From positions 3,165,262 to 3,229,261 of the forward strand of contig NZ_AP014821.1 in the NCBI RefSeq assembly GCF_001548115.1: 64,000 bases of DNA. Direction: 5' to 3'. The translations under genes were made by a program, and so were the position numbers. Source of the DNA: Geminocystis sp. NIES-3709. Lineage in GTDB: Bacteria; Cyanobacteriota; Cyanobacteriia; Cyanobacteriales; Cyanobacteriaceae. The notes below the pieces were generated by a model that was not told the origin of the DNA, made no database searches, and saw only the letters and a program-made list of their open reading frames with translations. Shown in pieces: positions 1 through 49,231 of this stretch (within the stretch, counting starts at the first letter, position 1; every line of letters starts with the position of its first letter).

Positions 1-296
1 ACACATTTTTTAACACTACTTTTTGGAATAGTCTTTCTCCGACAACCCAAAATATTATTAAAGAGGTTTTACCAGTCTATCAACTCAAACAACGCAAGGC
101 TCAAGCTGAATATAATCAACAAGCCTTTAAGGAATTAACGGAAGATAAAGGTATGATTGCTCTTACTCCCGATACTTCTGAAGTTCCTAAGAAATTAATC
201 CCTATTTATCAGTCTATATATAATAGATTAAACCCTTCGGCTCGATCGTTGGTTAAAGATTTATTGGAGGCAAAAACTGGTGTTAAATTTGATTAA
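1..296 (+). CDS. TRAP-type transporter substrate-binding protein (DctP-like), C-terminal end only
   Basis: The reading frame is open from the first bases (codons begin at base 3) to TAA at 294-296, giving about 97 residues with the start outside the window. The piece contains FWNSLSPTTQNIIKEVLP followed by a lysine/glutamine-rich helix and ends in LLEAKTGVKFD. The 'W..L....Q..I.E' pattern followed by long helices resembles the C-terminal helical part of DctP/TRAP solute-binding proteins, which bind organic acids in the periplasm and pass them to a small and a large membrane subunit. Those partners are not visible here. The last 17 bases overlap the next gene, suggesting translational coupling. 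Family assignment is from pattern only and moderately sure. Confidence 0.55.
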   Translation, partial: TFFNTTFWNSLSPTTQNIIKEVLPVYQLKQRKAQAEYNQQAFKELTEDKGMIALTPDTSEVPKKLIPIYQSIYNRLNPSARSLVKDLLEAKTGVKFD

Positions 297-1344
297 TCAC
301 AAATCCATTTCACACAGGCAAGATACCTGTTTCACGGGTAAGAATATTCTATCTCGATCGAGCTTTTTGTTTTCTGCTTTTATGATGAGTATTATTGCCC
401 TTAATTTTAGTCCATCTTTGGCTTGGGGACAAGAAAAATCAATGGTAGTGAAGGAAATTGATCTAACTAAATATGGTACAGCAGGTTCGATCGATGTAAG
501 TAATTCAAAACAACAGATTGTTATTACTTTTAATAACTGTAATCTCGTTTTTTTTGACTATAACTTCAACCAAGAAAATGAATTATCCCTAACAAATTGT
601 AAAAGACTTTTTCGAGCAAGGTATGGGGAGATAAATCAACAAAAAGTGCTAGTATCTTCTATTTATACGGGGCAAAGTATGATTTATGACTTTAAAGATA
701 TTTTTCCTATCCCCCTTCATAAAGCCGCCGTTACAGACTCCTTAATCGTCAATAATGATCTATTATCATCCTCCGATGACGGCTCTGTAAAACTTTCTCA
801 ACTATCGGAAAATCCCCTTTCTTCTAACAATACCACCAGTTTATATCAATCCACTGGAGTGGCTCGAAATTTGGCAGTGACTAGCAAGACAAACTCAGAG
901 GTTAACAAGGTTGCCGTAAGTTACGATACGGGAGAAATTACGATTTTTGACATTAATCAAAACGCTACTCAAACTAAACCTCAAACTTTTCGATCGATCC
1001 CTAGTCGTATCAATACTTTTAAGTTTACCCCTGATGGTTCTAAACTGTTAATTGGTTATTTTACAGGGGAATTAGTAGAATTAGATGTCACCACGGGAGA
1101 AAGCAAAACTCTTTTGAAAGTTGACTCATGGTTGAATAGCTTAGACATTAACAGCCAAAATTTAGTGTTAACGGGAGATGATGAAGGTTTTGTGAAAATT
1201 ATCTCTTTAGAAACAGGGCAAGTTATCCAACAAGAGAAAATCTCTGATAATGGAATTAATGCCGTTGCTTTTACGGTCGATCAAACTATGATTGTAGCTG
1301 ATTCCAAAGGAATGATTTATCAACTGGAAATCTCGAATTTCTAA
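280..1344 (+). CDS. Secreted WD40-like beta-propeller protein
   Basis: A 354-residue protein. The GTG start at 280 is chosen because a perfect GGAGG lies at 266-270, nine bases upstream; it overlaps the upstream stop. Residues about 27-50 form a hydrophobic stretch ending SLAWGQ, consistent with a signal peptide with an unusually long N-region. The rest has repeated blade-like units with hydrophobic strands and turns such as FTPDGSKLLIG and TGDDEGFVKIISLETG, typical of WD40/quinoprotein-like propellers. About four or five units can be recognised, so the fold is assigned but not the ligand. Part of the N-region is encoded by a 17-bp palindromic repeat. It is likely co-transcribed with the upstream binding-protein gene. 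Confidence 0.7.
   Translation: MLNLINHKSISHRQDTCFTGKNILSRSSFLFSAFMMSIIALNFSPSLAWGQEKSMVVKEIDLTKYGTAGSIDVSNSKQQIVITFNNCNLVFFDYNFNQENELSLTNCKRLFRARYGEINQQKVLVSSIYTGQSMIYDFKDIFPIPLHKAAVTDSLIVNNDLLSSSDDGSVKLSQLSENPLSSNNTTSLYQSTGVARNLAVTSKTNSEVNKVAVSYDTGEITIFDINQNATQTKPQTFRSIPSRINTFKFTPDGSKLLIGYFTGELVELDVTTGESKTLLKVDSWLNSLDINSQNLVLTGDDEGFVKIISLETGQVIQQEKISDNGINAVAFTVDQTMIVADSKGMIYQLEISNF
314..330. repeat. 17-bp palindromic interspersed repeat, copy 1 (inside a coding sequence)
   Basis: ACAGGCAAGATACCTGT has 5-bp inverted ends ACAGG/CCTGT. Its reverse complement matches the copy at 3739-3755 at 16 of 17 positions. The match extends into the flank GTGAA. It lies in frame within the N-terminal part of the WD40-like gene. 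Confidence 0.75.
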
Positions 1345-1604
1345 ACCTTCACCCTAACTCCTCTCCCCAAAGAAGGAAACTTTTGATTGAAAAAACAACC
1401 TTTAATTAATGGAATTGTATCATATATTGCCTTGTAATAAATTGACAAGGAACCAACAGCTAAAATCTGCTGAAGCGATTTAATAAATATCCTTGAAACA
1501 GTACAATACAAAAAATATAGTTTAATCTGTTTAAATTATTCGCTTTAGCTGACTTGTGCTATAAGCCATGAAATTTATTTCTTGGGGTGTTATGAGACAA
1601 TACC
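1345..1604. repeat. Intergenic space with degenerate cyanobacterial repeats
   Basis: Just after the WD40-like gene there is a CACCCTAACTCCTCTCCCC tract, which resembles a repeat common in cyanobacterial genomes. At about 1429-1450 CCTTG(TAATAAATTGA)CAAGG forms a small inverted repeat, followed by GCTGAAGCG. The same order (TAATAAATT, GGCTAATAG-like, CTAAAGCG-like) recurs at 13550-13600 and, reversed, at about 60489-60595. No gene is apparent. Confidence 0.45.
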
Positions 1605-2153
1605 TTAAGGCACTAAACGAGGTTTAATTTTCTCAATGCCTCTGATAGCACAGGTTTGATCTAAACCGCCTCCAGGTGAACCAGAAACACCGATCGCACC
1701 TACTATTTGATCCCCTACCTTAATCGCTACTCCTCCAGTGCTGAAACTAATACCCTTCAAGGGTTCAGGTGCTAATGGTAATGAACCAACGGGCAAGGGT
1801 GCAGGAGTCATCTTTTTGGCAATTTCTTCTGTCGAGTCCACTTTTGTAATTGGTGCTAAAGTAATTACAGTAAAAGCCTTATTAAAACTATTTGGTAAAG
1901 TGTGAGGAGTTGCACCATCCCCCCTGATGATAACTTGAGTATTTCCTTCGGAGTTAACTATTGTAGCAGTGACATTATAACCGTCTTTTTTACAACTTTC
2001 CACTGCTTCGATCGCAGCTTCTGTGGCAAGACTACTCGGCAATTGATACAAAGCGGTTAACGCCAAAGCCACAGGAGAAAAGGAAGTAAAGAAACTGACA
2101 AATAACCCGAGGGTTAATAAAGGAGAATAGAATAAACTTTTGTAAATTCTCAT
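1605..2153 (-). CDS. Exported GlcG/HbpS-like (DUF336) protein
   Basis: About 182 residues from ATG at 2153; a TTG three codons upstream is possible but less likely. Residues about 1-30 are a signal peptide (SLFYSPLLTLGLFVSFFTSF) ending near ALA. The mature part has the GlcG/HbpS features: helix LATEAAIEAVESCKKDGYNV, strand ATIVNSEGNTQVIIRGDGA, a SFNKAFTV helix, and the glycine-rich GGVAIKVGDQIVGAIGVSG followed by the AIRGIEKI helix. Members of this superfamily bind heme or small organic molecules. An exported stand-alone form suggests a periplasmic binding or sensing role, but the ligand cannot be read. It stands alone, reverse strand, convergent with the WD40-like gene. Confidence 0.8.
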   Translation of the reverse strand: MRIYKSLFYSPLLTLGLFVSFFTSFSPVALALTALYQLPSSLATEAAIEAVESCKKDGYNVTATIVNSEGNTQVIIRGDGATPHTLPNSFNKAFTVITLAPITKVDSTEEIAKKMTPAPLPVGSLPLAPEPLKGISFSTGGVAIKVGDQIVGAIGVSGSPGGGLDQTCAIRGIEKIKPRLVP

Positions 2154-2242
2154 GATAATCAATGAAAAAACATATTTAATTGCTCAAAGTTTCCTAAAGC
2201 AATATTACTATAACTAATTTAGGTCAATATAATCTTCTAAAA

Positions 2243-2542
2243 TTACGTCAATATCCCTCTAGGTATTTTGATTTTGTACCCACGTTTTCTTAAATTCTCC
2301 AAACTAGATTCAATATCAATGTCATCATCAATCTCTATAACAGTTTCCCACAGTTCAGGATTATCAATATCATCTACATCTTTTAAACGATCGATCGCCC
2401 TTTGTTCGGCGGATTTTCGAGAAATTTCCTGTTGATACTTTACTATTAAAAATTCCACAAAATCTAAAATCTGATCTTGTTTATCTACGGGCAATAACTT
2501 CGTTTTTTTGGTAATTAAATCAACGGTATTCATAAATGTCAT
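2243..2542 (-). CDS. DUF2281-like antitoxin-type protein (orphan)
   Basis: A 99-residue acidic protein. The segment LLPVDKQDQILDFVEFLIVKY matches the pattern of DUF2281/VapB-like antitoxins (L-P-x-x-K-Q-x-x-x-x-D-F-V-E-F-L). The C-terminal half is rich in Asp/Glu with a short basic end. A second ATG at 2533 is an equally plausible start. No toxin-like reading frame (PIN, RelE or Fic type) lies on either side: downstream is the GlcG-like gene and upstream an intergenic space. It is therefore either an orphan antitoxin or a regulator of the same fold. Function is inferred from pattern only. Confidence 0.6.
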   Translation of the reverse strand: MTFMNTVDLITKKTKLLPVDKQDQILDFVEFLIVKYQQEISRKSAEQRAIDRLKDVDDIDNPELWETVIEIDDDIDIESSLENLRKRGYKIKIPRGILT

Positions 2543-2728
2543 CTCAAAAGTTCACGAAAATCTGCTTTAAATGATAATTAACAAAATTTGTCGTACTTCA
2601 AAATCTGGTATGTGTTAAATCCAGTTACCTTTCAAGTCTTAGTATAAATTAATATACTAATATGATGTTTTTAGTTCGTCTTTTTATTATTATATATATC
2701 AAAAATATTAAGAAATTTTTTTACCTTC

Positions 2729-3532
2729 ATGAAAGTTTGGAATATTATTTGTTTAATTTCGATCGTTCTTTGTGCCATGATTATTTTTCCTAGTCATGCC
2801 TTATCTGCGAATAAATTTGATCGTTATAAGCATTACATGGAGGATATTCCTATGCCTCAAATTAAAGAAACAGAAAATATTTTAGGTCCTGCTGGAGAAA
2901 TTTTTAAATTTACAACTTGTAATCGTGGTGATTTAGGATTTTCCCTCGCTTATGGTACAATTCCGCCCGGAGCGGGGCCTTTACCTCATGTTCACCACTA
3001 TACCAATGAATGGTTTTGGACTCCCGAAGGGGGCATACAATTATTAGAAAGTACAAATAAATATCCTGATCTTAACTTTCCTCCCACTCCTGATCAAGCT
3101 GGAAATGGCGTTCTTTATAGCCTTGACAGTGAACCAAATCAAATATTTTACGGACCTAAATATCATATTCACGGTTTTATCAATAAGACAACCGAAACCC
3201 ATCCTCTTTTATTTATTTGGATGAGAGACGAATCTTCACCGAAATATCCTTTAAATGATGGTGGTATTCGGGAGTATTTTCAAGAGGTAGGAATTCCCAT
3301 TAAAGACTTAAATAATTTACCCCCCATCACAGAAAAAGCAAAAAGAGATTTTGTTATGTCAGCGTCTAAATATGGAATTAATCAAAGTGCCTTTTTTGAA
3401 GAGTATATAAAAGATCTTAGTGATGATATTCCAATAAAATTAATTAAACTTTATAATGAGGAAGATTTAATTAGGATCATTGATGCAGTTAATGCTTATA
3501 ATCAAGGTGATAAATCCGTTAGTTGTTTTTAG
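2729..3532 (+). CDS. Secreted cupin-domain protein
   Basis: 267 residues. The N-terminus (MKVWNIICLISIVLCAMIIF ... SHALSA) is a signal peptide with cleavage near residue 26. The cupin motif 1 is clear: PPGAGPLPHVHHYTNEWFW, with His-x-His-His and a downstream Glu as likely metal ligands. The second motif contributes YHIHGFINK. This suggests a bicupin-like or single-cupin metal protein of the quercetinase type, exported to the periplasm. The C-terminal 90 residues are helical and acidic without a known domain. It starts a forward-strand series with the XapX mini-gene 16 bases downstream. Substrate unknown. Confidence 0.75.
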   Translation: MKVWNIICLISIVLCAMIIFPSHALSANKFDRYKHYMEDIPMPQIKETENILGPAGEIFKFTTCNRGDLGFSLAYGTIPPGAGPLPHVHHYTNEWFWTPEGGIQLLESTNKYPDLNFPPTPDQAGNGVLYSLDSEPNQIFYGPKYHIHGFINKTTETHPLLFIWMRDESSPKYPLNDGGIREYFQEVGIPIKDLNNLPPITEKAKRDFVMSASKYGINQSAFFEEYIKDLSDDIPIKLIKLYNEEDLIRIIDAVNAYNQGDKSVSCF

Positions 3533-3548
3533 AAATTTTTTATAGATT

Positions 3549-3719
3549 ATGAATAAAGAATTAGGAATAGCTATTTTGGGGGGGTGGATTTTAGGAGTGA
3601 TTTTTACTGCTTTTAAAATTCCTTTACCCGTACCTGCTTTTCAAGGTTTAGTGGCGGCGGCGGCGGTATTGGTAGGTCAACTTACTTATACTTTTATTAA
3701 GCAGAAATTAAATTTTTAG
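3549..3719 (+). CDS. XapX-domain (DUF1427-like) small membrane protein
   Basis: A 56-residue frame from ATG at 3549 to TAG at 3717-3719. The translation contains LGIAILGGWILGVIFTAFKI, then PLPVPAFQGLVAAAAVLVGQ, then a short basic tail. This is the XapX layout: a glycine-rich membrane helix, a proline-rich turn (P-x-P-x-P-A), then a second helix. XapX proteins are tiny two-helix membrane proteins of unknown role, often next to cupin or metabolic enzymes, as here. It is 16 bases behind the cupin gene and most likely co-transcribed with it. Confidence 0.75.
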   Translation: MNKELGIAILGGWILGVIFTAFKIPLPVPAFQGLVAAAAVLVGQLTYTFIKQKLNF

Positions 3720-3738
3720 CATTATTTTTTGATGTGAA

Positions 3739-3755
3739 ACAGGCATCTTGCCTGT
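3739..3755. repeat. 17-bp palindromic interspersed repeat, copy 2
   Basis: ACAGGCATCTTGCCTGT lies between the XapX and epimerase genes. It is in opposite orientation to the copy at 314-330 and shares the flanking GTGAA. In RNA it could form a small hairpin (ACAGGCA/TGCCTGT). Confidence 0.75.
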
Positions 3756-3808
3756 AGTAATTTCCATTAGATTATTTACTTATCAAGAGCTAAATAAGGG
3801 TTTTTATC

Positions 3809-4678
3809 ATGACTCAATCCCCATTAATTCGATTTGGTGTTCATACTTTTATTTGGAAAAAAGAATTTTTAGGCCATGAAGAATTTATTTTCGATCGAGC
3901 AAAGAGTTGGGGATTTGATAGTGTAGAAATTGCTACTCATAGTTTTGAGCAAATCAATCCTGATACTATTAAAAGCTATCAAGACAAATATGGATTAGGT
4001 ATAAGTTTTTGTACCAGTATGCCTCAAGGATTATCTCTAACCAGTGCCGATCGTCAATGTTGGGAAGAATCTGTAAATTATGTACAAAAAGCCATTGAGT
4101 TTTGTCAAAATTGCGGTATTACTCAATTATCAGGCCCTTTAATTCATCCTGTTGGTTATCTTAGTGGCAAACCCCTTCAAGATGAGGAAGAAAAACTGTT
4201 ACATCAAGCCTTAAGGGAAATTGCCGATACCGTTTCTAACACGGAAATAAAAATTGCGATCGAACCCCTTAATCGTTTTCAGGGTTATGCTTTAAATACT
4301 GTCGAACAAGGATTAAGACTATTAAACTCGATCGACTGTCCTCATCTGGGACTATTATTAGATTTATTTCACATGAATATTGAGGAAAAGGACATGATTA
4401 AAGCCTTTTTACAAGCAGGAAAAAAATGTTTTCATGTTCATGTTAGTGCGAAAGACAGAGGCACACCCGGCAGTGATACTCTTCCTTGGATAGAATTATT
4501 TAACACCCTCAAAACCATAGAATATCAAGGCTTGATCGTCATTGAAAGTTTTAACGCTGAAGATACAGAATTAGCTACGGCTGCTAAAATTTGGCGTAAA
4601 GTTGCCCCCAGTAGCCAATACATAGCCCAAGAAGGACTTAAATTTTTACACCACACCTATCAAACATCTTTATCATGA
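3809..4678 (+). CDS. Sugar phosphate isomerase/epimerase family protein (xylose-isomerase-like TIM barrel)
   Basis: 289 residues. It has the AP-endonuclease-2/xylose-isomerase-like TIM-barrel pattern: FGVHTFIW at the first strand, GFDSVEIA at the second, IAIEPLNRF, GLLLDLFHMNIEE, FHVHVSAKDRG and LIVIESF at later strands. The Glu of IEPLNRF, Asp of LLDLFH, His of HVHVS and Glu of VIESF line up with the metal-binding Glu-Asp-His-Glu set of D-tagatose/D-psicose 3-epimerases. It therefore likely interconverts keto-sugars or similar polyols; exact substrate unknown. The stop overlaps the next start by four bases (ATGA), a strong sign of an operon with the alpha/beta hydrolase. Confidence 0.8.
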   Translation: MTQSPLIRFGVHTFIWKKEFLGHEEFIFDRAKSWGFDSVEIATHSFEQINPDTIKSYQDKYGLGISFCTSMPQGLSLTSADRQCWEESVNYVQKAIEFCQNCGITQLSGPLIHPVGYLSGKPLQDEEEKLLHQALREIADTVSNTEIKIAIEPLNRFQGYALNTVEQGLRLLNSIDCPHLGLLLDLFHMNIEEKDMIKAFLQAGKKCFHVHVSAKDRGTPGSDTLPWIELFNTLKTIEYQGLIVIESFNAEDTELATAAKIWRKVAPSSQYIAQEGLKFLHHTYQTSLS

Positions 4679-5550
4679 ATCAACCATTTATTTCCATTCC
4701 CCTACCTTCTGGATTTACCCATACTTATACAAAAGTTAATGATATTACCCTTCATGCTCTTGAAGGAGGAACTGGTGAACCATTAGTATTATTAGGAGGT
4801 TGGCCTCAAACTTGTTACGTTTGGCGATTATTATTAGAGCCGTTAAGTAAATATTTTCATGTTATCGCCTTAGACTTGAGAGGGCAAGGAGACTCAGATA
4901 TTCCCGAAAGTGGTTATGATTGTGCGACATCTGCCCAAGAAGTAATCGATTTTATGACAGAAAAACAAATAACCTCATTTTACCTAGTGGGGCATGATGT
5001 AGGTGCTTGGGTTGCATTCACCATCTTAAAACTTTTCCCTCAACAAATTCAAGGTTTAGGATTGATTGATGCGGCCATACCAGGGCTTGTTAGTAACGAT
5101 TTTTTCTCTTTAGAAAATGCTGGTAAAGTTTGGCAATTTTACTTCCACAAAGTACCAGATTTAGCCGATAGCTTAGTGAAGGGAAAAGAAAAAGAATATT
5201 TAACATGGTATTTCACCAATAAATCAAAACGCAAAGAGAACTTATCTGCTGAAATTATCGATCATTACGTTAGTTATTATAGTCGTCCCTATGCCATGAA
5301 AGCAGGATTTTTATGGTATGCCAGTCTCGAAGAAAATATTAAAACTAATACCCTAACCCCAGATACTCGATTTATTCAACCCATTTTCACTATGGGGGGA
5401 GAATTTGCCACTAAATCTTTAATTTATAATGGTTTAGCCTCCTATTGTGAGAACATTACAAACTATGTCATTGAAGAATGTGGACATTATATCCCAGAAG
5501 AAGCTCCAGAAGATATTATCAAAGCTATTTTAAGCACTTTTATTTCTTAA
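4675..5550 (+). CDS. Alpha/beta hydrolase, epoxide-hydrolase/haloalkane-dehalogenase-like
   Basis: 291 residues. LVLLGGWPQTCYVWR is the oxyanion-hole region (G-W-P variant of HGxP). LDLRGQGDSD precedes the nucleophile elbow VGHDVGAWVAF, in which Asp is the nucleophile. Asp rather than Ser points to the epoxide hydrolase/dehalogenase group. The catalytic His lies in EECGHYIPEEAPEDI near the C-terminus. A cap region of about residues 145-220 is present. The gene overlaps the epimerase gene by four bases, so the pair probably act in one pathway of small oxidised metabolites; this is inference. Confidence 0.8.
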   Translation: MNQPFISIPLPSGFTHTYTKVNDITLHALEGGTGEPLVLLGGWPQTCYVWRLLLEPLSKYFHVIALDLRGQGDSDIPESGYDCATSAQEVIDFMTEKQITSFYLVGHDVGAWVAFTILKLFPQQIQGLGLIDAAIPGLVSNDFFSLENAGKVWQFYFHKVPDLADSLVKGKEKEYLTWYFTNKSKRKENLSAEIIDHYVSYYSRPYAMKAGFLWYASLEENIKTNTLTPDTRFIQPIFTMGGEFATKSLIYNGLASYCENITNYVIEECGHYIPEEAPEDIIKAILSTFIS

Positions 5551-38806: not shown

Positions 38807-40399
38807 ATGAAACAGAAATTATTATGGTTAACGGCTAGTATCAATCTAGTGGCTTTTTGCCTTCCTGCATGGGGTTTAAATGAGTCTTTGTCAGAAAAAG
38901 GCATTAATGCTTTAGTGTTACAGGAACCTCCTTACAATTTACTAGGTCGTAAAATAAGTATAGGTCAAGTAGAAATCGGCAGACCGAAAAAATTTGCTTT
39001 AGATAAAGTTCATCCACTACATAAAGCATTACCGATCGCTCGTCTTTTTTACCGCAATCAACCAGCACAACCAAACACCCATATCGACAATCACGCTATG
39101 ATGGTGGCTTCTGTTATGGTGAGTAATCAAAAAACATTACGAGGTATTGCCCCCTTAGCTAAGTTGTATTCTGGTGCTGTAGGCTCTCTCAAAAATGCTG
39201 CACAACCCGAAGAATGTCTCACAACTCAAAACATTGCTTTACAAAATAGTGGTAGTGTGAGGGCTATTAATTTAAGTTTTGGAGAGTCTTTAGCTAGAGA
39301 CGATCGAGAAAATCCTCAACTAGATGGTAACGCATTACTTACTCAATGTTTAGATTGGTCAGCAAGAGTTCATAATGTTATGTATGTAGTGGCAGGAAAT
39401 CAAGGATTAGGAGGAATTCCCATCCCAACAGACAACTATAACGGAATCACCACAGCGTATAGTATGCGTAAAGGAGGAGTTTTTAGTAAAGTTGATTTTG
39501 CTAATTTAAGTATTTCACCGATGGGTATTGCCAAGGCTTTGATTCGTCAGGAAACTAATATTGATGGAAGACGGGGAATTAGTTTACTCGCCCCCGGCAG
39601 TAAAATTGATGTCTATAATTTGGATGGCAAAGTGGAACAAGTAAGTGGTAGTAGTTTTGCCGCTCCTCACATTACTGGATCGATCGCATTGTTACAAGAA
39701 GCAGGAAATAATTTTTTACAAGAAAATCCGAATACATGGACAAAAGACTATCAAAATCATGAACTAATGAAGGCTATTTTACTTAATTCTGCGGATAAAT
39801 TGAAAGATAAAGGCGATGGTAATTTGTTAGGAATGATTCGTAATGTTTATACTCAAAAAAATAAAACTTGGCTGGAAAGTGATGCTTATATAAACTCAGA
39901 TATTCCCCTAGATATGGAGATGGGTGCGGGGCATTTAAACACCATGAGAGCTTATCACCAATTGAAAGCTGGTCAGTTTAACTATAATGAAAAAGTATCT
40001 CCCATAGGATGGAATTATGATAAAATTGAGGAAAATAAGACCCATGACTATATTATCAAACAACCTTTAAAAGCAGATAGTTTTATCTCTATTACTCTTA
40101 CATGGGATCGTTTAGTGGAGTTAAATGACTCTAATAATAACCAAGAATATGATATAGGAGAACACTTTATCGATCGAGGTTTAAATAATTTAGATTTAGA
40201 GTTAATTAATAGTAATAATCAAGAAAAAATAGTATGTTCTTCTATAAGTAAAATTGATAGTGTTGAACATATTTTCTGCCCAATTCCCAAAACGGGTGAG
40301 TATAAAATTCGAGTGAATTTCAAAGAAAAAGTTAATAATTCCAGTCAACCCTATGGTTTAGCATGGCACGGACTCTCTTCAAACTCATCTGAAAATTAG
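38807..40399 (+). CDS. Secreted S8 (subtilisin-like) serine protease
   Basis: 530 residues. Signal peptide of about 23 residues (LLWLTASINLVAFCLPAWG). The His motif is DNHAMMVASVMVSN, the oxyanion Asn lies in MYVVAGNQG, and the Ser motif is SGSSFAAPHITGSIALLQ. The usual Asp motif (V-x-D-x-G) is replaced by IGQVEIGRPKKF, in which Glu stands where Asp is expected. A beta-rich C-terminal domain (about 400-530) with ISITLTWDR and YKIRVNF resembles a P/pre-peptidase C-like domain. It probably acts outside the plasma membrane. Single gene. Confidence 0.82.
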   Translation: MKQKLLWLTASINLVAFCLPAWGLNESLSEKGINALVLQEPPYNLLGRKISIGQVEIGRPKKFALDKVHPLHKALPIARLFYRNQPAQPNTHIDNHAMMVASVMVSNQKTLRGIAPLAKLYSGAVGSLKNAAQPEECLTTQNIALQNSGSVRAINLSFGESLARDDRENPQLDGNALLTQCLDWSARVHNVMYVVAGNQGLGGIPIPTDNYNGITTAYSMRKGGVFSKVDFANLSISPMGIAKALIRQETNIDGRRGISLLAPGSKIDVYNLDGKVEQVSGSSFAAPHITGSIALLQEAGNNFLQENPNTWTKDYQNHELMKAILLNSADKLKDKGDGNLLGMIRNVYTQKNKTWLESDAYINSDIPLDMEMGAGHLNTMRAYHQLKAGQFNYNEKVSPIGWNYDKIEENKTHDYIIKQPLKADSFISITLTWDRLVELNDSNNNQEYDIGEHFIDRGLNNLDLELINSNNQEKIVCSSISKIDSVEHIFCPIPKTGEYKIRVNFKEKVNNSSQPYGLAWHGLSSNSSEN

Positions 40400-42566: not shown

Positions 42567-43196
42567 TTAAGAATTTTCTTTTTCACTTTCATATTGTTTC
42601 GGTAAAGCAATTCTACTATGAAAATTAGAATATCGCTTAGAAAAATGTTCTAAATAAGGACTAACTAAAACACATCTTCTTTTAATATTTCCTAATTTTA
42701 TTTGATGATAAAGAAACTCAGGAGTGATACCAAATACTTTCTTAAAATCTGCCGTTAATTCGGGTAACCCTTCTTTTTCTAATTCACAACTATTAAGTAC
42801 TTTTTCAAAAAAATAAAACCTCTCGTGACGATGAGAATTTACTAACTTCCATTCATCACTATTTAAAAAGTTTTTACCTGTTATATCTTTAGTATTTCTT
42901 ATATTTCTAGCTGTATCTATTTCACATAAAATAATTGAATTAAGTAATTTAGGATTAGATATTTCTTTATTTTGATTATTATCATTAAATCTAGCTTTGT
43001 AATCCCAATCTAAGTCACAATCTTGAGTCACAATAATAGCAAAAGGATGAATAATAGGCTGAAATTCTGTATTTTCTAAAGATTTATCATCAAAATTAGT
43101 GGGTCTAAATTGAGTAATATTAGTTAAAATCTCTCCTTGTCTAAGAGGAGATTCTGTTTGAGAAGGTTTATAAATAGATGGTTTATCTTTATCCAT
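42567..43196 (-). CDS. Uncharacterised protein with QDCDLD motif, third gene of accessory module
   Basis: 209 residues, not a family I can name. The middle has HPFAIIVTQDCDLDWDY with Cys flanked by Asp, then SIILCEIDTARNIRN, and NIKRRCVLVSPYLEHFSKRY near the end. No signal peptide or membrane segment. Predicted alternating strands suggest a compact alpha/beta fold, possibly an enzyme with the Asp/Cys residues at the active site, which is speculation. It follows the 106-residue gene by 18 bases on the same strand and so belongs to the TIGR04255 module. Codon use is as AT-rich as its surroundings. Confidence 0.6.
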   Translation of the reverse strand: MDKDKPSIYKPSQTESPLRQGEILTNITQFRPTNFDDKSLENTEFQPIIHPFAIIVTQDCDLDWDYKARFNDNNQNKEISNPKLLNSIILCEIDTARNIRNTKDITGKNFLNSDEWKLVNSHRHERFYFFEKVLNSCELEKEGLPELTADFKKVFGITPEFLYHQIKLGNIKRRCVLVSPYLEHFSKRYSNFHSRIALPKQYESEKENS

Positions 43197-43214
43197 TACT
43201 ATTATTTATTTAAT

Positions 43215-43532
43215 TTAAAAATCATCTAATACTAAAGAAGGACGTATTTTAGGAGGTAAAATTTTCCCTTTAATAGTTGTCTGATAAGTTGGTAAAGATG
43301 TTTGATAATTATCAGTTAAATCTTCTGAATAAAAATCAATAATTCCTTCTAAATTTTCATTAGCTTCTTCTATAGCATCGTCAGAAAGACGTTTAATAAT
43401 CCACACACATTTAATAAATAACTCTTGCTTTTCTGGTGATAAATTAGCCCAAGTAAAACTATTCTCATTATTACCAAATTGTAAAGGTTTTATTTTAAAG
43501 GGATTCAGGGGGTTGGGGTTGCATGACTTCAT
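43215..43532 (-). CDS. Small uncharacterised protein, second gene of accessory module
   Basis: About 105 residues from ATG at 43532, a start that overlaps the previous gene by 38 bases; the frame is open further up (to 43613) but the extra part would overlap more. It contains FTWANLSPEKQELFIKCVWI and IKRLSDDAIEEANENLEGII, two helices, then a disordered end rich in Thr and Pro. Size and position suggest a partner protein. No Shine-Dalgarno is visible, so translation is probably coupled to the TIGR04255 gene. Unrecognised. Confidence 0.55.
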   Translation of the reverse strand: MKSCNPNPLNPFKIKPLQFGNNENSFTWANLSPEKQELFIKCVWIIKRLSDDAIEEANENLEGIIDFYSEDLTDNYQTSLPTYQTTIKGKILPPKIRPSLVLDDF

Positions 43533-44286
43533 GGAGTCTGTCTGTGATACTCCATCGAAACAGATGTCTAGCTGACTCGTTAAAGTAGTCGAGGGGTTGC
43601 CAAATACTCTCATCAGTTTTCTCCTTTTCTTGAGTAAAAAAATCTGCGTCTAATAAATAACCTATTTCTTTGTTATTTTCTTCTTGATTAGTAACCTCAA
43701 CAAAACCATGTCTAAAGCTAACTAATCCATAGTCATTTTCTAAAACTAAATTTTTGGCTATATTTTTGATTGAGTTTTTTATAGCAGAATTAGCTAATTC
43801 TGAAGCTATATTAGGACTAATTAATTCAGCCCATTGTACATTTTCTAAGTCTAATTTAGAACGAATAATTAAATCTTGGTATCTAAAACCAATCCGAGAA
43901 TAAAAAGAGGGTTTATAAATTTCTTGAAAAATATTAATGATTTTTTTAAGTTGCTGTTTAAAAGTATCATAACGTTCGTAATCTAAAGTTTTTAAAGCTA
44001 GAAAATCTTTGGTTAAAGTTAATAACCATTTTTCATCTTCAGATTTAAACAGATGTCCCATTTCTTCATTAGGGAAAGGAAATCCTGTTTGTTGAATAAT
44101 TTTATTAAAATCTGATGGTAATTGCGGTTTATTAACTTCATAATAAGGATATTCATCTCGAATTGCCTCTTGAAAATCAACAGGCTCAGAATTAACCTTA
44201 AGTATAGGTGGATAGCGTAATTGACACACAACCTCGATTAAGGGGTTACGTTTATAAATTACACGTTCTGATTTAGGTAAGTCCAT
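43495..44286 (-). CDS. TIGR04255-family protein, first gene of accessory module
   Basis: 263 residues. RNPLIEVVCQLRYPPILKV near the N-terminus and FRWSITDRLHEVMQP near the C-terminus are the boundary motifs of the sporadically distributed TIGR04255 family. The centre has FYSRIGFRYQDLIIRSKLDL and a weakly conserved beta-rich part. No transmembrane or signal region. Members occur patchily across bacteria and archaea, usually in accessory regions, with unknown function. Here the gene leads a three-gene reverse operon ahead of uvrC. The patchy spread suggests horizontal transfer, but composition does not differ visibly from the surroundings. Confidence 0.75.
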   Translation of the reverse strand: MDLPKSERVIYKRNPLIEVVCQLRYPPILKVNSEPVDFQEAIRDEYPYYEVNKPQLPSDFNKIIQQTGFPFPNEEMGHLFKSEDEKWLLTLTKDFLALKTLDYERYDTFKQQLKKIINIFQEIYKPSFYSRIGFRYQDLIIRSKLDLENVQWAELISPNIASELANSAIKNSIKNIAKNLVLENDYGLVSFRHGFVEVTNQEENNKEIGYLLDADFFTQEKEKTDESIWQPLDYFNESARHLFRWSITDRLHEVMQPQPPESL

Positions 44287-48106: not shown

Positions 48107-49231
48107 ATGAAGCCTACAATTTTTCTTAGTTTAGTTTTATCTTTAATTTTTCCTTTTATGGTTAATTTGTCTCCCATATTGGCTAGGGATGACTTATTAT
48201 CTAATTCGATCGCCCAAAAGACTCGCAGTCGGCAAAATTCGGTAAGACAAAATGTCAATTCTCGTTCTCGTAATCGTCCTAGTTCATCACGAAATATTAA
48301 TCGTGGGAAGAATGTTAATGTAAATCGATCTGAGATCGATCGAGATAGAGTTAATAATCGAGATAGAGTTAATAATCGAGATAGAGTTAATAATCGGGAT
48401 AGAGTTAATAATCGAGATAGAGTTAATAATCGGGATAGAGTTAATAATCGGGATAGAGTTAATAATCGGGATAGAGTTAATAATCGGGATAGAGTTAATA
48501 AAGGTAAAGTAAATCATCATCATCGCAACTCTGATCGAAATCCTACCCGTAATGTTAATTATCATCGGGGAGTTAATAAGTCTCCTTATAATCGCAGTTA
48601 CGATCGAAATCGAATACATGATACGAACATTGATTATGATCAGATTAGAAATAGCAATTCTCGCCGTGGAGTAAATAGTTCTAACTATAATCGCAATCAT
48701 GATCGAACTCGTCACAATAATCGTCCTATCGACTACGATCGAGTAAAAAATGGCAGTTATCCTTATGGAGTTAATAATTATCGCCGTAATCGCAATTTCG
48801 ATCGTTATCGGATCAATAATCGAATTAACCGCAGAAATATTAATACTCCGAATCGCTATATAATCATCAATCCTCGATCGCATTGGAATAATTGGGGATG
48901 GAATGGAGGAGTAATATGGTCTCCTAATTATGGTTTTTGGGGTGGCGGTTTTTGGGGTTCTTTTGGAGTACCAACATCAAACACTCGTGTAAGTACTGGA
49001 ATAATTTACTCTAATAACTCATCTGACTACGTTACTATTAGCGACAATACTCCGGGTTTTAATTTATTTGATAGCTACGGTTTGACTCAAGTACAATGTG
49101 ATAATACCCTAGATTTAGTTTTTATTTATGGCCCTCAAGATAGCTTAATTTGTGCTTTGCCAAATAATTATGTAGTTGCAGGATATTATGATGTTAATCC
49201 GGTTAACTTAAGTCTTGTAGCTCGTTTTTAA
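48107..49231 (+). CDS. Secreted protein with RDRVNN repeats and a conserved C-terminal domain
   Basis: 374 residues. Signal peptide of about 27 residues (IFLSLVLSLIFPFMVNLSPI, then LARD). After a basic Ser/Arg region, nine near-identical hexapeptide repeats R-D-R-V-N-N (about residues 79-132) follow, then a long Asn/Arg/Tyr-rich stretch without fold character. From about residue 265 a domain begins (WNNWGWNGGVIWSPNYGFWG; later GLTQVQCDNTLDLVFIYGPQ, ALPNNYVVAGYYDVNP), which I recognise as a cyanobacterial secreted domain of unknown function. The strongly basic repeat part may bind polysaccharide or nucleic acid; this is inference. Confidence 0.7.
   Translation: MKPTIFLSLVLSLIFPFMVNLSPILARDDLLSNSIAQKTRSRQNSVRQNVNSRSRNRPSSSRNINRGKNVNVNRSEIDRDRVNNRDRVNNRDRVNNRDRVNNRDRVNNRDRVNNRDRVNNRDRVNNRDRVNKGKVNHHHRNSDRNPTRNVNYHRGVNKSPYNRSYDRNRIHDTNIDYDQIRNSNSRRGVNSSNYNRNHDRTRHNNRPIDYDRVKNGSYPYGVNNYRRNRNFDRYRINNRINRRNINTPNRYIIINPRSHWNNWGWNGGVIWSPNYGFWGGGFWGSFGVPTSNTRVSTGIIYSNNSSDYVTISDNTPGFNLFDSYGLTQVQCDNTLDLVFIYGPQDSLICALPNNYVVAGYYDVNPVNLSLVARF
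48341..48502 (+). repeat. 18-bp in-frame tandem repeat (nine copies)
   Basis: Unit CGAGATAGAGTTAATAAT with GAG/GGG variants repeats nine times and encodes R-D-R-V-N-N. Variants are mostly at the third base of the Arg codon (CGA/CGG), suggesting recent expansion. Confidence 0.9.

What the first reader, a model, noticed from the sequence alone, without database searches (positions are those of the whole stretch)
42567..44286. Three-gene accessory module led by a TIGR04255 protein, possibly an undescribed system
Seen: three reverse-strand genes with overlap or 18-base spacing (263, about 105 and 209 residues), inserted between uvrC and mraY. The first has the boundary motifs of TIGR04255, a patchily distributed family of unknown function. 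The third has an unusual VTQDCDLD motif with Cys between Asp residues. The middle gene has no visible Shine-Dalgarno and overlaps the first, which implies coupled synthesis. Inference: an accessory cassette that moves as a unit, possibly defence- or stress-related.
Basis: partly seen in the sequence, partly recalled or inferred. Interest (0 to 1): 0.65.

Follow-up and report, generated by a model that had tools for sequence, protein, structure and literature searches.

The report
Three-gene module with exchangeable toxin-like gene
This cyanobacterial gene trio belongs to a widespread, apparently undescribed family of three-gene modules in which a constant first gene (TIGR04255) is paired with exchangeable last genes, several of which look like bacterial toxins, while the middle gene is a two-part adaptor; whether it kills, defends or regulates is untested.

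Summary
The trio is real and recurs. TIGR04255 (T) is followed by a middle gene (M) and a third gene (E) at 36 of 38 cyanobacterial loci and 28 of 80 loci of a capped genome scan, and on plasmids of proteobacteria and actinobacteria. M is 132 codons, not about 105: it starts at 43613 behind AAGGAG and overlaps T by 119 bases. E, the QDCDLD protein, is predicted to have the MazF/CcdB toxin fold (best Z 10.5) without MazF sequence similarity. Elsewhere the E slot holds PIN/VapC, HEPN, DUF7689 or unknown families. T genes 71-80% identical carry unrelated E genes; M is chimeric: its N-terminal part follows T, its C-terminal part follows E. For DUF7689 the M-C/E pair also stands alone. Best reading: a tripartite toxin-antitoxin-like module whose antitoxin, M, depends on T through an added N-terminal part, like chaperone-addicted TAC systems but with no SecB match found. 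Toxicity, neutralisation and defence are inferred. T has no module at the other 52 loci (Clostridia; three hold too little DNA to tell). Defence genes were not clearly enriched nearby.

The parts
43495..44286 (-). T: TIGR04255 family protein, 263 aa, first gene and constant component
   Evidence: NCBIfam TIGR04255 E 4.1e-46; AF2 model pLDDT 91.8
43215..43613 (-). M: middle gene, 132 aa, overlaps T by 119 bases; proposed antitoxin/adaptor
   Evidence: ORF; matches M of L085 (33% over 143 columns) and L099; no Pfam match over its cut-off, no NCBIfam or PADLOC match
43621..43626 (-). AAGGAG, Shine-Dalgarno-like site of M, inside T, 7 bases before the ATG at 43613
42567..43196 (-). E: third gene, 209 aa, predicted MazF/CcdB-fold toxin-like protein
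   Evidence: AF2 model pLDDT 87.3; VIA best 6kyt_K Z 10.5, 3.0 A, 117 aligned; the 50 rows are MazF, CcdB or Kid type by title, some titled only toxin or endoribonuclease
43134..43139 (-). codons Q20-G21 of E; both invariant in the 13-sequence alignment A1
   Evidence: in A7 and A8 G21 is invariant, Q20 is not
43014..43019 (-). codons C60-D61 of E (QDCDLD motif), invariant in A1, A7 and A8

Best explanation
T-M-E is a tripartite toxin-antitoxin-like module. E is the toxic effector: a MazF/CcdB-fold protein here, and PIN/VapC, HEPN, DUF7689 or other families elsewhere. M is the antitoxin: its C-terminal part binds and neutralises E, and its N-terminal part is an extension that makes M depend on T. 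T is the constant partner that holds M in its active form. When T is titrated or lost (phage, stress or loss of the plasmid), M fails and E acts. Shown by computation: gene order, overlap, predicted E fold, exchange of E, the two-part behaviour of M, and stand-alone M-C/E pairs for DUF7689. Inferred: toxicity, neutralisation, T-M binding, trigger.
For: E fold: MazF/CcdB type, VIA Z 10.5 to 7.9 over 50 rows, same families in Foldseek. E slot in relatives: HEPN (PF05168 4.7e-8) and PIN (PF01850 4.5e-6), both over their cut-offs, VapC-type PIN (TIGR00028 1.7e-13, under its cut-off), DUF7689 (2.1e-38). T followed by two same-strand genes at 36 of 38 cyanobacterial T loci. Exchange: T of L037, L099, L101 and L102 is 71-80% identical, E in three classes that do not match each other. 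Chimeric M: among pairs with T under 45% identical, the last 90 aa of M match in 29 of 136 pairs with related E and 0 of 1595 with unmatched E; the first 75 aa match in 47 of 99 pairs with T at 45% or more and 11 of 1731 below. DUF7689 is preceded by the M-C domain, without T nearby, at 24 of 29 places. M has an HTH in some relatives: L078 over cut-off, L038 under it, and three plasmid M proteins are annotated as HTH proteins. Many copies are on plasmids.
Against: No toxicity or neutralisation data. E has no sequence match to MazF; no Foldseek match reached E 0.001 (best 1.6e-3, TM by query 0.33); MazF catalytic residues were not mapped. The window's M has no HTH match. M names a slot: M proteins of different modules mostly do not match each other. 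Several E classes have no known function. T is without a module at 52 of 80 loci, so T has a role outside it. In the window's clade the start of M overlaps T's coding sequence, so part of its tracking of T is automatic. T is not recognisably a chaperone.
Confidence: 0.55

Rival explanations
1. Sensor-adaptor-effector defence system, not a toxin-antitoxin: T senses a phage component, M couples T to E, and E is inactive until T signals. M activates rather than neutralises.
For: Exchange of effectors behind a constant first gene and a two-part adaptor; nuclease-type effectors in some loci; an abortive-infection family gene upstream in Methylocystis, with two short WGR-domain ORFs between; multiubiquitin/ThiF/DUF6527 genes beside the Rhizobium copy.
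Against: PADLOC families beside 35 cyanobacterial T loci not clearly above control. M-C/E pairs without T and a short M-like gene with E but no T (L179, L180) suggest that M and E work as a pair.
Confidence: 0.25
2. A regulatory or metabolic cassette in which E uses the MazF-like barrel for binding, not for killing.
For: No MazF sequence signature; a weak E-like domain joined to a receiver domain; T also occurs alone in Clostridia beside housekeeping-like genes.
Against: HEPN and VapC-type PIN in the same slot; patchy, often plasmid-borne distribution.
Confidence: 0.13
3. T is an enzyme of the guanido-kinase kind (McsB-like) that marks M for degradation or protects it by phosphorylation.
For: Foldseek top hits McsB, best E 1.1e-4; VIA Z 8.7 to arginine kinase over 185 residues.
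Against: Z near the background quoted by the tool, TM about 0.35, rmsd 4.3 A in VIA; Med18 and AdoMetDC entries match about as well in VIA, and TBP is in the Foldseek list. In 39 diverse T only one residue (Y103) is invariant, so no catalytic set is kept.
Confidence: 0.04
4. Unrelated accessory genes that happen to lie together.
For: T, M and E can each be missing.
Against: Same order and strand, often overlapping, in distant phyla.
Confidence: 0.02

Closest known systems
Toxin-antitoxin-chaperone (TAC) modules, including CmdTAC (PMC5105189: abstract and section list read; PMC11618068: passages read)
   Same: Three genes; an antitoxin with an extra segment tied to a third partner; antitoxins without the segment exist; varied toxins; plausible phage trigger.
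   Different: T has no Pfam match, SecB included; the extra part of M is N-terminal, not C-terminal; T is first in the operon; no functional data.
MazEF/Kid-Kis/CcdAB type II toxin-antitoxin systems
   Same: Predicted fold of E; M-before-E order; close spacing; plasmid carriage in relatives.
   Different: E is larger (about 180-290 aa in complete copies), has invariant CD and G, no MazF sequence match, and a third gene T.
Combinatorial type II TA networks such as PanA (PMC10440598: only the start of the abstract seen in search listings; the name PanA is recalled)
   Same: A constant partner joined to many toxins.
   Different: Here the exchange point lies inside a middle gene, and the constant protein is TIGR04255.
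TIGR04255 (NCBIfam)
   Same: T is a member.
   Different: The library gives only the family name; no paper in the held library contains the term.

Membership tests
TIGR04255 | score over the curated cut-off of 30 bits | tested here: met
   157.8 bits, positions 2-249 of 252
Type II toxin-antitoxin module | two small adjacent same-strand genes, closely spaced | tested here: met
   M and E, 18-base gap; recurs
Type II toxin-antitoxin module | known toxin fold or family in the toxin slot | tested here: met
   predicted E fold MazF/CcdB; HEPN, PIN/VapC in relatives
Type II toxin-antitoxin module | DNA-binding domain in the antitoxin | tested here: inconclusive
   HTH in some relatives (L078 PF12844 5.9e-8; L038 PF01381 2.1e-4, under cut-off); no match in the window's M
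Type II toxin-antitoxin module | toxin arrests growth and antitoxin neutralises it | not testable with these tools
   needs expression tests
MazF/PemK family | fold | tested here: met
   predicted model against 6kyt_K: Z 10.5, 3.0 A, 117 aligned
MazF/PemK family | sequence profile match | tested here: not met
   no Pfam family at E up to 1; no MazF chain at E up to 10 with profile A8
MazF/PemK family | catalytic Arg and Thr/Ser (recalled) | not tested
   no residue-level structural alignment was available
TAC module | SecB-like chaperone as third component | tested here: inconclusive
   no Pfam family for T at E up to 1; SecB not in the listed fold matches, which does not exclude it
TAC module | antitoxin with an added segment linked to the third component; relatives without segment and partner | tested here: met
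   first part of M tracks T (partly automatic through the overlap); stand-alone M-C/DUF7689 pairs. That M is an antitoxin is inferred
Guanido kinase / McsB | conserved catalytic residues | tested here: not met
   only Y103 invariant in 39 diverse T
Known anti-phage system in PADLOC-DB 2.0.0 | match of any component | tested here: not met
   no family for the three window proteins at E up to 1; among ten relatives' E only the HEPN protein (1.7e-5, 0.022) and one weak homing-endonuclease row (0.032) matched

The most novel reading that the evidence does not exclude
T plus the N-terminal part of M form a general-purpose trigger that can be bolted on to almost any toxin-antitoxin pair: recombination inside M swaps the toxin and its neutralising domain while the trigger stays. 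This would be a new, SecB-independent class of partner-addicted toxin-antitoxin systems, probably anti-phage, spread across at least five phyla with about a dozen effector families by my own classing, some of them new toxins.
Probability: 0.33. Interest if true: 0.82.

Novelty: new variant of a known kind. Interest (0 to 1): 0.67.

Why it matters
It would give a role to TIGR04255, a family known only by number; predict several new toxin families from the slot they occupy (the QG/CD MazF-fold family and DUF7689 among them); and offer a natural experiment, the exchange point inside M, showing which part of an antitoxin answers to the toxin and which to the control partner. Each claim can be tested in a laboratory strain with three small genes.

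Tried and rejected
(1) Hydrophobic or membrane segment at the N-terminus of M: suggested by eye, but in 42 of 44 M proteins the maximal 15-residue hydropathy was not beyond shuffles at 0.05 (exceptions L045, L194). The first 60 residues are richer in Ser/Thr than the rest in 41 of 44. (2) Defence islands: 129 of 137 chosen ORFs beside 35 cyanobacterial T loci (one, L057, without module; the window's own locus not included) and 130 of 139 chosen control ORFs were scanned against PADLOC at 1e-8; 239 and 211 families matched. The tool tallies families, not proteins, and shows 25, so this is crude, but no clear enrichment. (3) Empty site between uvrC and mraY: not testable, neighbours differ in all five relatives. 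(4) T as SecB: not in the listed fold matches, which does not exclude it. (5) T replaced by a far relative in G024 (259 aa) and G050 (214 aa): comparison with a T profile gave nothing clearly above shuffles. (6) Stand-alone E classes S and D on plasmids: no match. (7) PHROGs gave only weak matches of T to families of unknown function (3.1e-4 and 1.2e-3) and of M to an SSB family (0.017). (8) Literature: 'TIGR04255' and 'DUF7689' in no held paper; the other searches listed analogues only. Supplements and preprints were not searched. (9) A fold search of T among viral models gave one better match of unnamed function (A0A515MGR4, E 1.7e-8), then TBP-like and other proteins. (10) Sigma-70-like promoter hits in the region were about as many as in shuffles (15 against 13.0); three terminator-like hits against 0.9, two of them one hairpin inside E on both strands. 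(11) A slip of mine: one of nine rows of the long QG/CD subgroup (L080) was translated in the wrong frame, and it also entered a profile used. One search repeats these with the right frame; the figures quoted are and the conclusions stand.

Full report
What is in the window. The three minus-strand genes are T (43495-44286, 263 aa), M (43215-43613, 132 aa) and E (42567-43196, 209 aa). T is a TIGR04255 protein (E 4.1e-46). M and E match no Pfam family over its cut-off and no NCBIfam or PADLOC family (M has two weak Pfam rows at E about 0.1). The ATG at 43613 has AAGGAG 7 bases upstream, inside T, giving a 119-base overlap. In 21 of the 24 related loci listed the longest M frame opens 101-155 bases inside T (gaps), in several behind GAGG, GGAG or AAGGAG; others (L090 and L096 among them) show no such site, and L092, L097 and L098 open later.

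Recurrence in cyanobacteria. TIGR04255 is found in 32 of 386 genomes of the phylum and in none of 14 control genomes. The 39 matches make 38 loci, because one broken gene gives two. At 36 of 38, at least two further same-strand genes follow, within about 150 bases of each other; the exceptions are L057, and L063, which is broken. By sequence family the third gene is: the QG/CD family of the window at 15 (two of them truncated: L039, L042), classes B/C at 8, D/S at 5, HEPN at 2 (L058 by Pfam, L059 by likeness to it), PIN at 2, and four singletons (one, L073, of metallo-beta-lactamase appearance by eye). The letter classes are my own names, drawn by eye and then compared. B with C (30%) and D with S (43%) are joined only by weak profile similarity, whereas the four other subgroups of the QG/CD family join the window's subgroup at 59-96%. 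'M' names a position: the M proteins of different modules mostly do not match each other.

Recurrence elsewhere. A scan of genome contigs with four close T proteins confirmed 111 places and kept the best 80. Of these, 28 (L085-L112; Cyanobacteriota, Chloroflexota, Actinomycetota, Planctomycetota, Pseudomonadota, two Bacillota, one unnamed bacterium) carry an E-class gene, counting incomplete ones (L088, L092, L101); the profiles were built partly from these loci, and L094 appears to be the same locus as L044 (T identical). The other 52 (L113-L164, Clostridia or Bacillota by title) match none of the 13 E profiles. In three of them (L126, L129, L138) too little downstream DNA is held to tell. 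There T often sits beside acetyltransferase-, nicotinamidase- or phosphoribosyltransferase-like genes (by eye). So T is not confined to the module. On plasmids, three E queries matched 14 records. T lies at the right distance in 12; the exceptions are R. acidisoli, where E is in pieces and T is not found, and Rhizobium sp. WSM1274, an 82-residue match in an unannotated record that I did not open. A phage-labelled Acinetobacter contig also has all three.

Is the QDCDLD protein found without T? A profile of the family matched 14 of 386 cyanobacterial genomes. Eight hits are strong (E 7.7e-34 or better). Five sit next to T. Two (G097, G233, one genus) have a 90-aa M-like gene and E without T. One (G024) has a 259-aa first gene that does not match T clearly above shuffles. 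Six hits are weak (E 6.9e-8 to 4.4e-4); the two looked at are a receiver-joined protein (G073) and a two-gene locus (G050) with another first gene unlike T.

What E is. With 19 aligned sequences AlphaFold2 gave pLDDT 87.3. In Foldseek no match reached E 0.001; the best were MazF chains at 1.6e-3 and the first 50 rows are MazF-type toxins by title, some titled only toxin, apart from a CptIN type III toxin at rank 48. The VIA second look at Foldseek's matches gave 50 rows of MazF, CcdB or Kid type by title; best Z 10.5, rmsd 3.0 A, 117 of 117 residues of M. tuberculosis MazF-mt1; rank 50 still 7.9. The tool quotes a typical best Z of 7-8 and rank-50 Z of 4-5 for models without a clear match. Profile search of PDB sequences found no MazF chain at E up to 10, so this is a resemblance of predicted fold only. 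C60 and D61 are invariant in A1, A7 and A8; Q20 and G21 in A1, G21 alone of the two in A7 and A8. They follow the strand in which MazF has its ...ND motif (recalled).

What T is. The T model is confident (pLDDT 91.8). Its best solved matches are guanido kinases (Z 8.7 over 185 residues, 4.3 A), then AdoMetDC and Med18 entries; TBP is in the Foldseek list. I read a duplicated strand-strand-strand-helix layout, at Z values that the tool warns may mean only a common arrangement. Across 39 diverse T only Y103 is invariant. I take T for a binding protein, not an enzyme; this is inference.

Exchange and the chimeric M. On a tree of 89 T proteins (quick method, SH-aLRT support only; ten of the 52 solo T included) the E classes need 21 changes, against 40.6 for shuffled labels: clustered but repeatedly exchanged (the labels of L199 and L100 were confirmed only afterwards). 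In one clade of support 100 (L037, L099, L101, L102) T is 71-80% identical while E is D, QG/CD or DUF7689 with no mutual match except L101-L102. The M of L037 matches that of L099 over residues 1-124 (36%), and that of L053 over residues 180-270 (47%), although T of L037 and L053 share only 20%; their E are 53% identical. For 61 modules (68 before near-copies were removed; nine incomplete loci dropped, and loci whose M is not annotated, such as L080, L198 and L199, not entered), M's last 90 residues match in 29 of 136 pairs with related E and 0 of 1595 with unmatched E when T is under 45% identical or not alignable. M's first 75 residues match in 47 of 99 pairs with T at 45% or more and 11 of 1731 below. 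Against full neatness: in 9 of 35 pairs with similar T and unmatched E the C-terminus also matches (all L099 against the window's subgroup, whose E are of one profile family), and part of the N-terminal signal comes from the overlap with T.

Stand-alone pairs. DUF7689 occurs at 29 places in 23 of 386 cyanobacterial genomes. By pattern (4) or by eye (20), 24 are directly preceded by the M-C domain; of the other five, four showed none or no upstream frame and one (L222) was tested by the narrow pattern only, without a match. None lies within 5 kb of a T match. Thus for this class the M-C/E pair exists without T, and T plus the first part of M looks like an addition.

Mechanism. The closest worked example is the TAC system: the chaperone binds a short antitoxin segment that is absent from chaperone-independent antitoxins and destabilises the antitoxin without the chaperone (PMC5105189, abstract and section list read). 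In CmdTAC, capsid protein pulls the chaperone away, the antitoxin is degraded and the toxin freed (PMC11618068, passages read). I propose that T and the first part of M play these parts here. T shows no SecB family match, the added part is N-terminal, and every functional step is inferred.

Defence link. HEPN, PIN and MazF folds fit growth arrest or abortive infection. Single neighbours are suggestive: an abortive-infection family gene upstream in Methylocystis, multiubiquitin/ThiF/DUF6527 genes in Rhizobium. A crude comparison of PADLOC matches near T loci and in control regions gave no clear difference.

Verdict. A real, widespread, modular three-gene system, most likely a tripartite toxin-antitoxin-like module; new in its constant component and in the exchange point inside M, and not found in the papers searched.

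Noticed in passing
L113-L164 (Clostridia or Bacillota, many Oscillospiraceae): TIGR04255 proteins 29-37% identical to the window's, without module, often beside housekeeping-like genes: 52 of 80 loci, three of them with too little downstream DNA to tell.
   Followed up: partly
L182 (G073), 146-5073: An E-like QG/CD-family domain (weak, E 6.9e-8) lies in a protein with a weak receiver-domain match, beside a protein with two HATPase matches, a C5 DNA methylase and Vsr endonuclease; hits with the same 355-aa frame occur in three more genomes (not opened).
   Followed up: partly
L201-L229: DUF7689 is regularly preceded by a small protein with the M-C domain: a two-gene pair of unknown function in cyanobacteria.
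   Followed up: partly
L181 4327-5106 and L183 5324-5968: Proteins of T-like size but without clear T similarity occupy the first-gene slot before QG/CD-family genes.
   Followed up: partly
L076 5497-6153 and L084 (second gene after T): Third genes of a Rhizobium plasmid and a viral contig share a possible cysteine-peptidase-like 'GLTC' motif (by eye).
   Followed up: no
window 48107-49231: ORF with about ten RDRVNN-type hexapeptide repeats.
   Followed up: no
window 38807-40399: Subtilisin-like serine protease ORF beside uvrC (by eye).
   Followed up: no
BFVD A0A515MGR4: Unnamed viral protein whose predicted fold resembles T better by Foldseek E-value (1.7e-8) than any solved structure (best 1.1e-4).
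   Followed up: no
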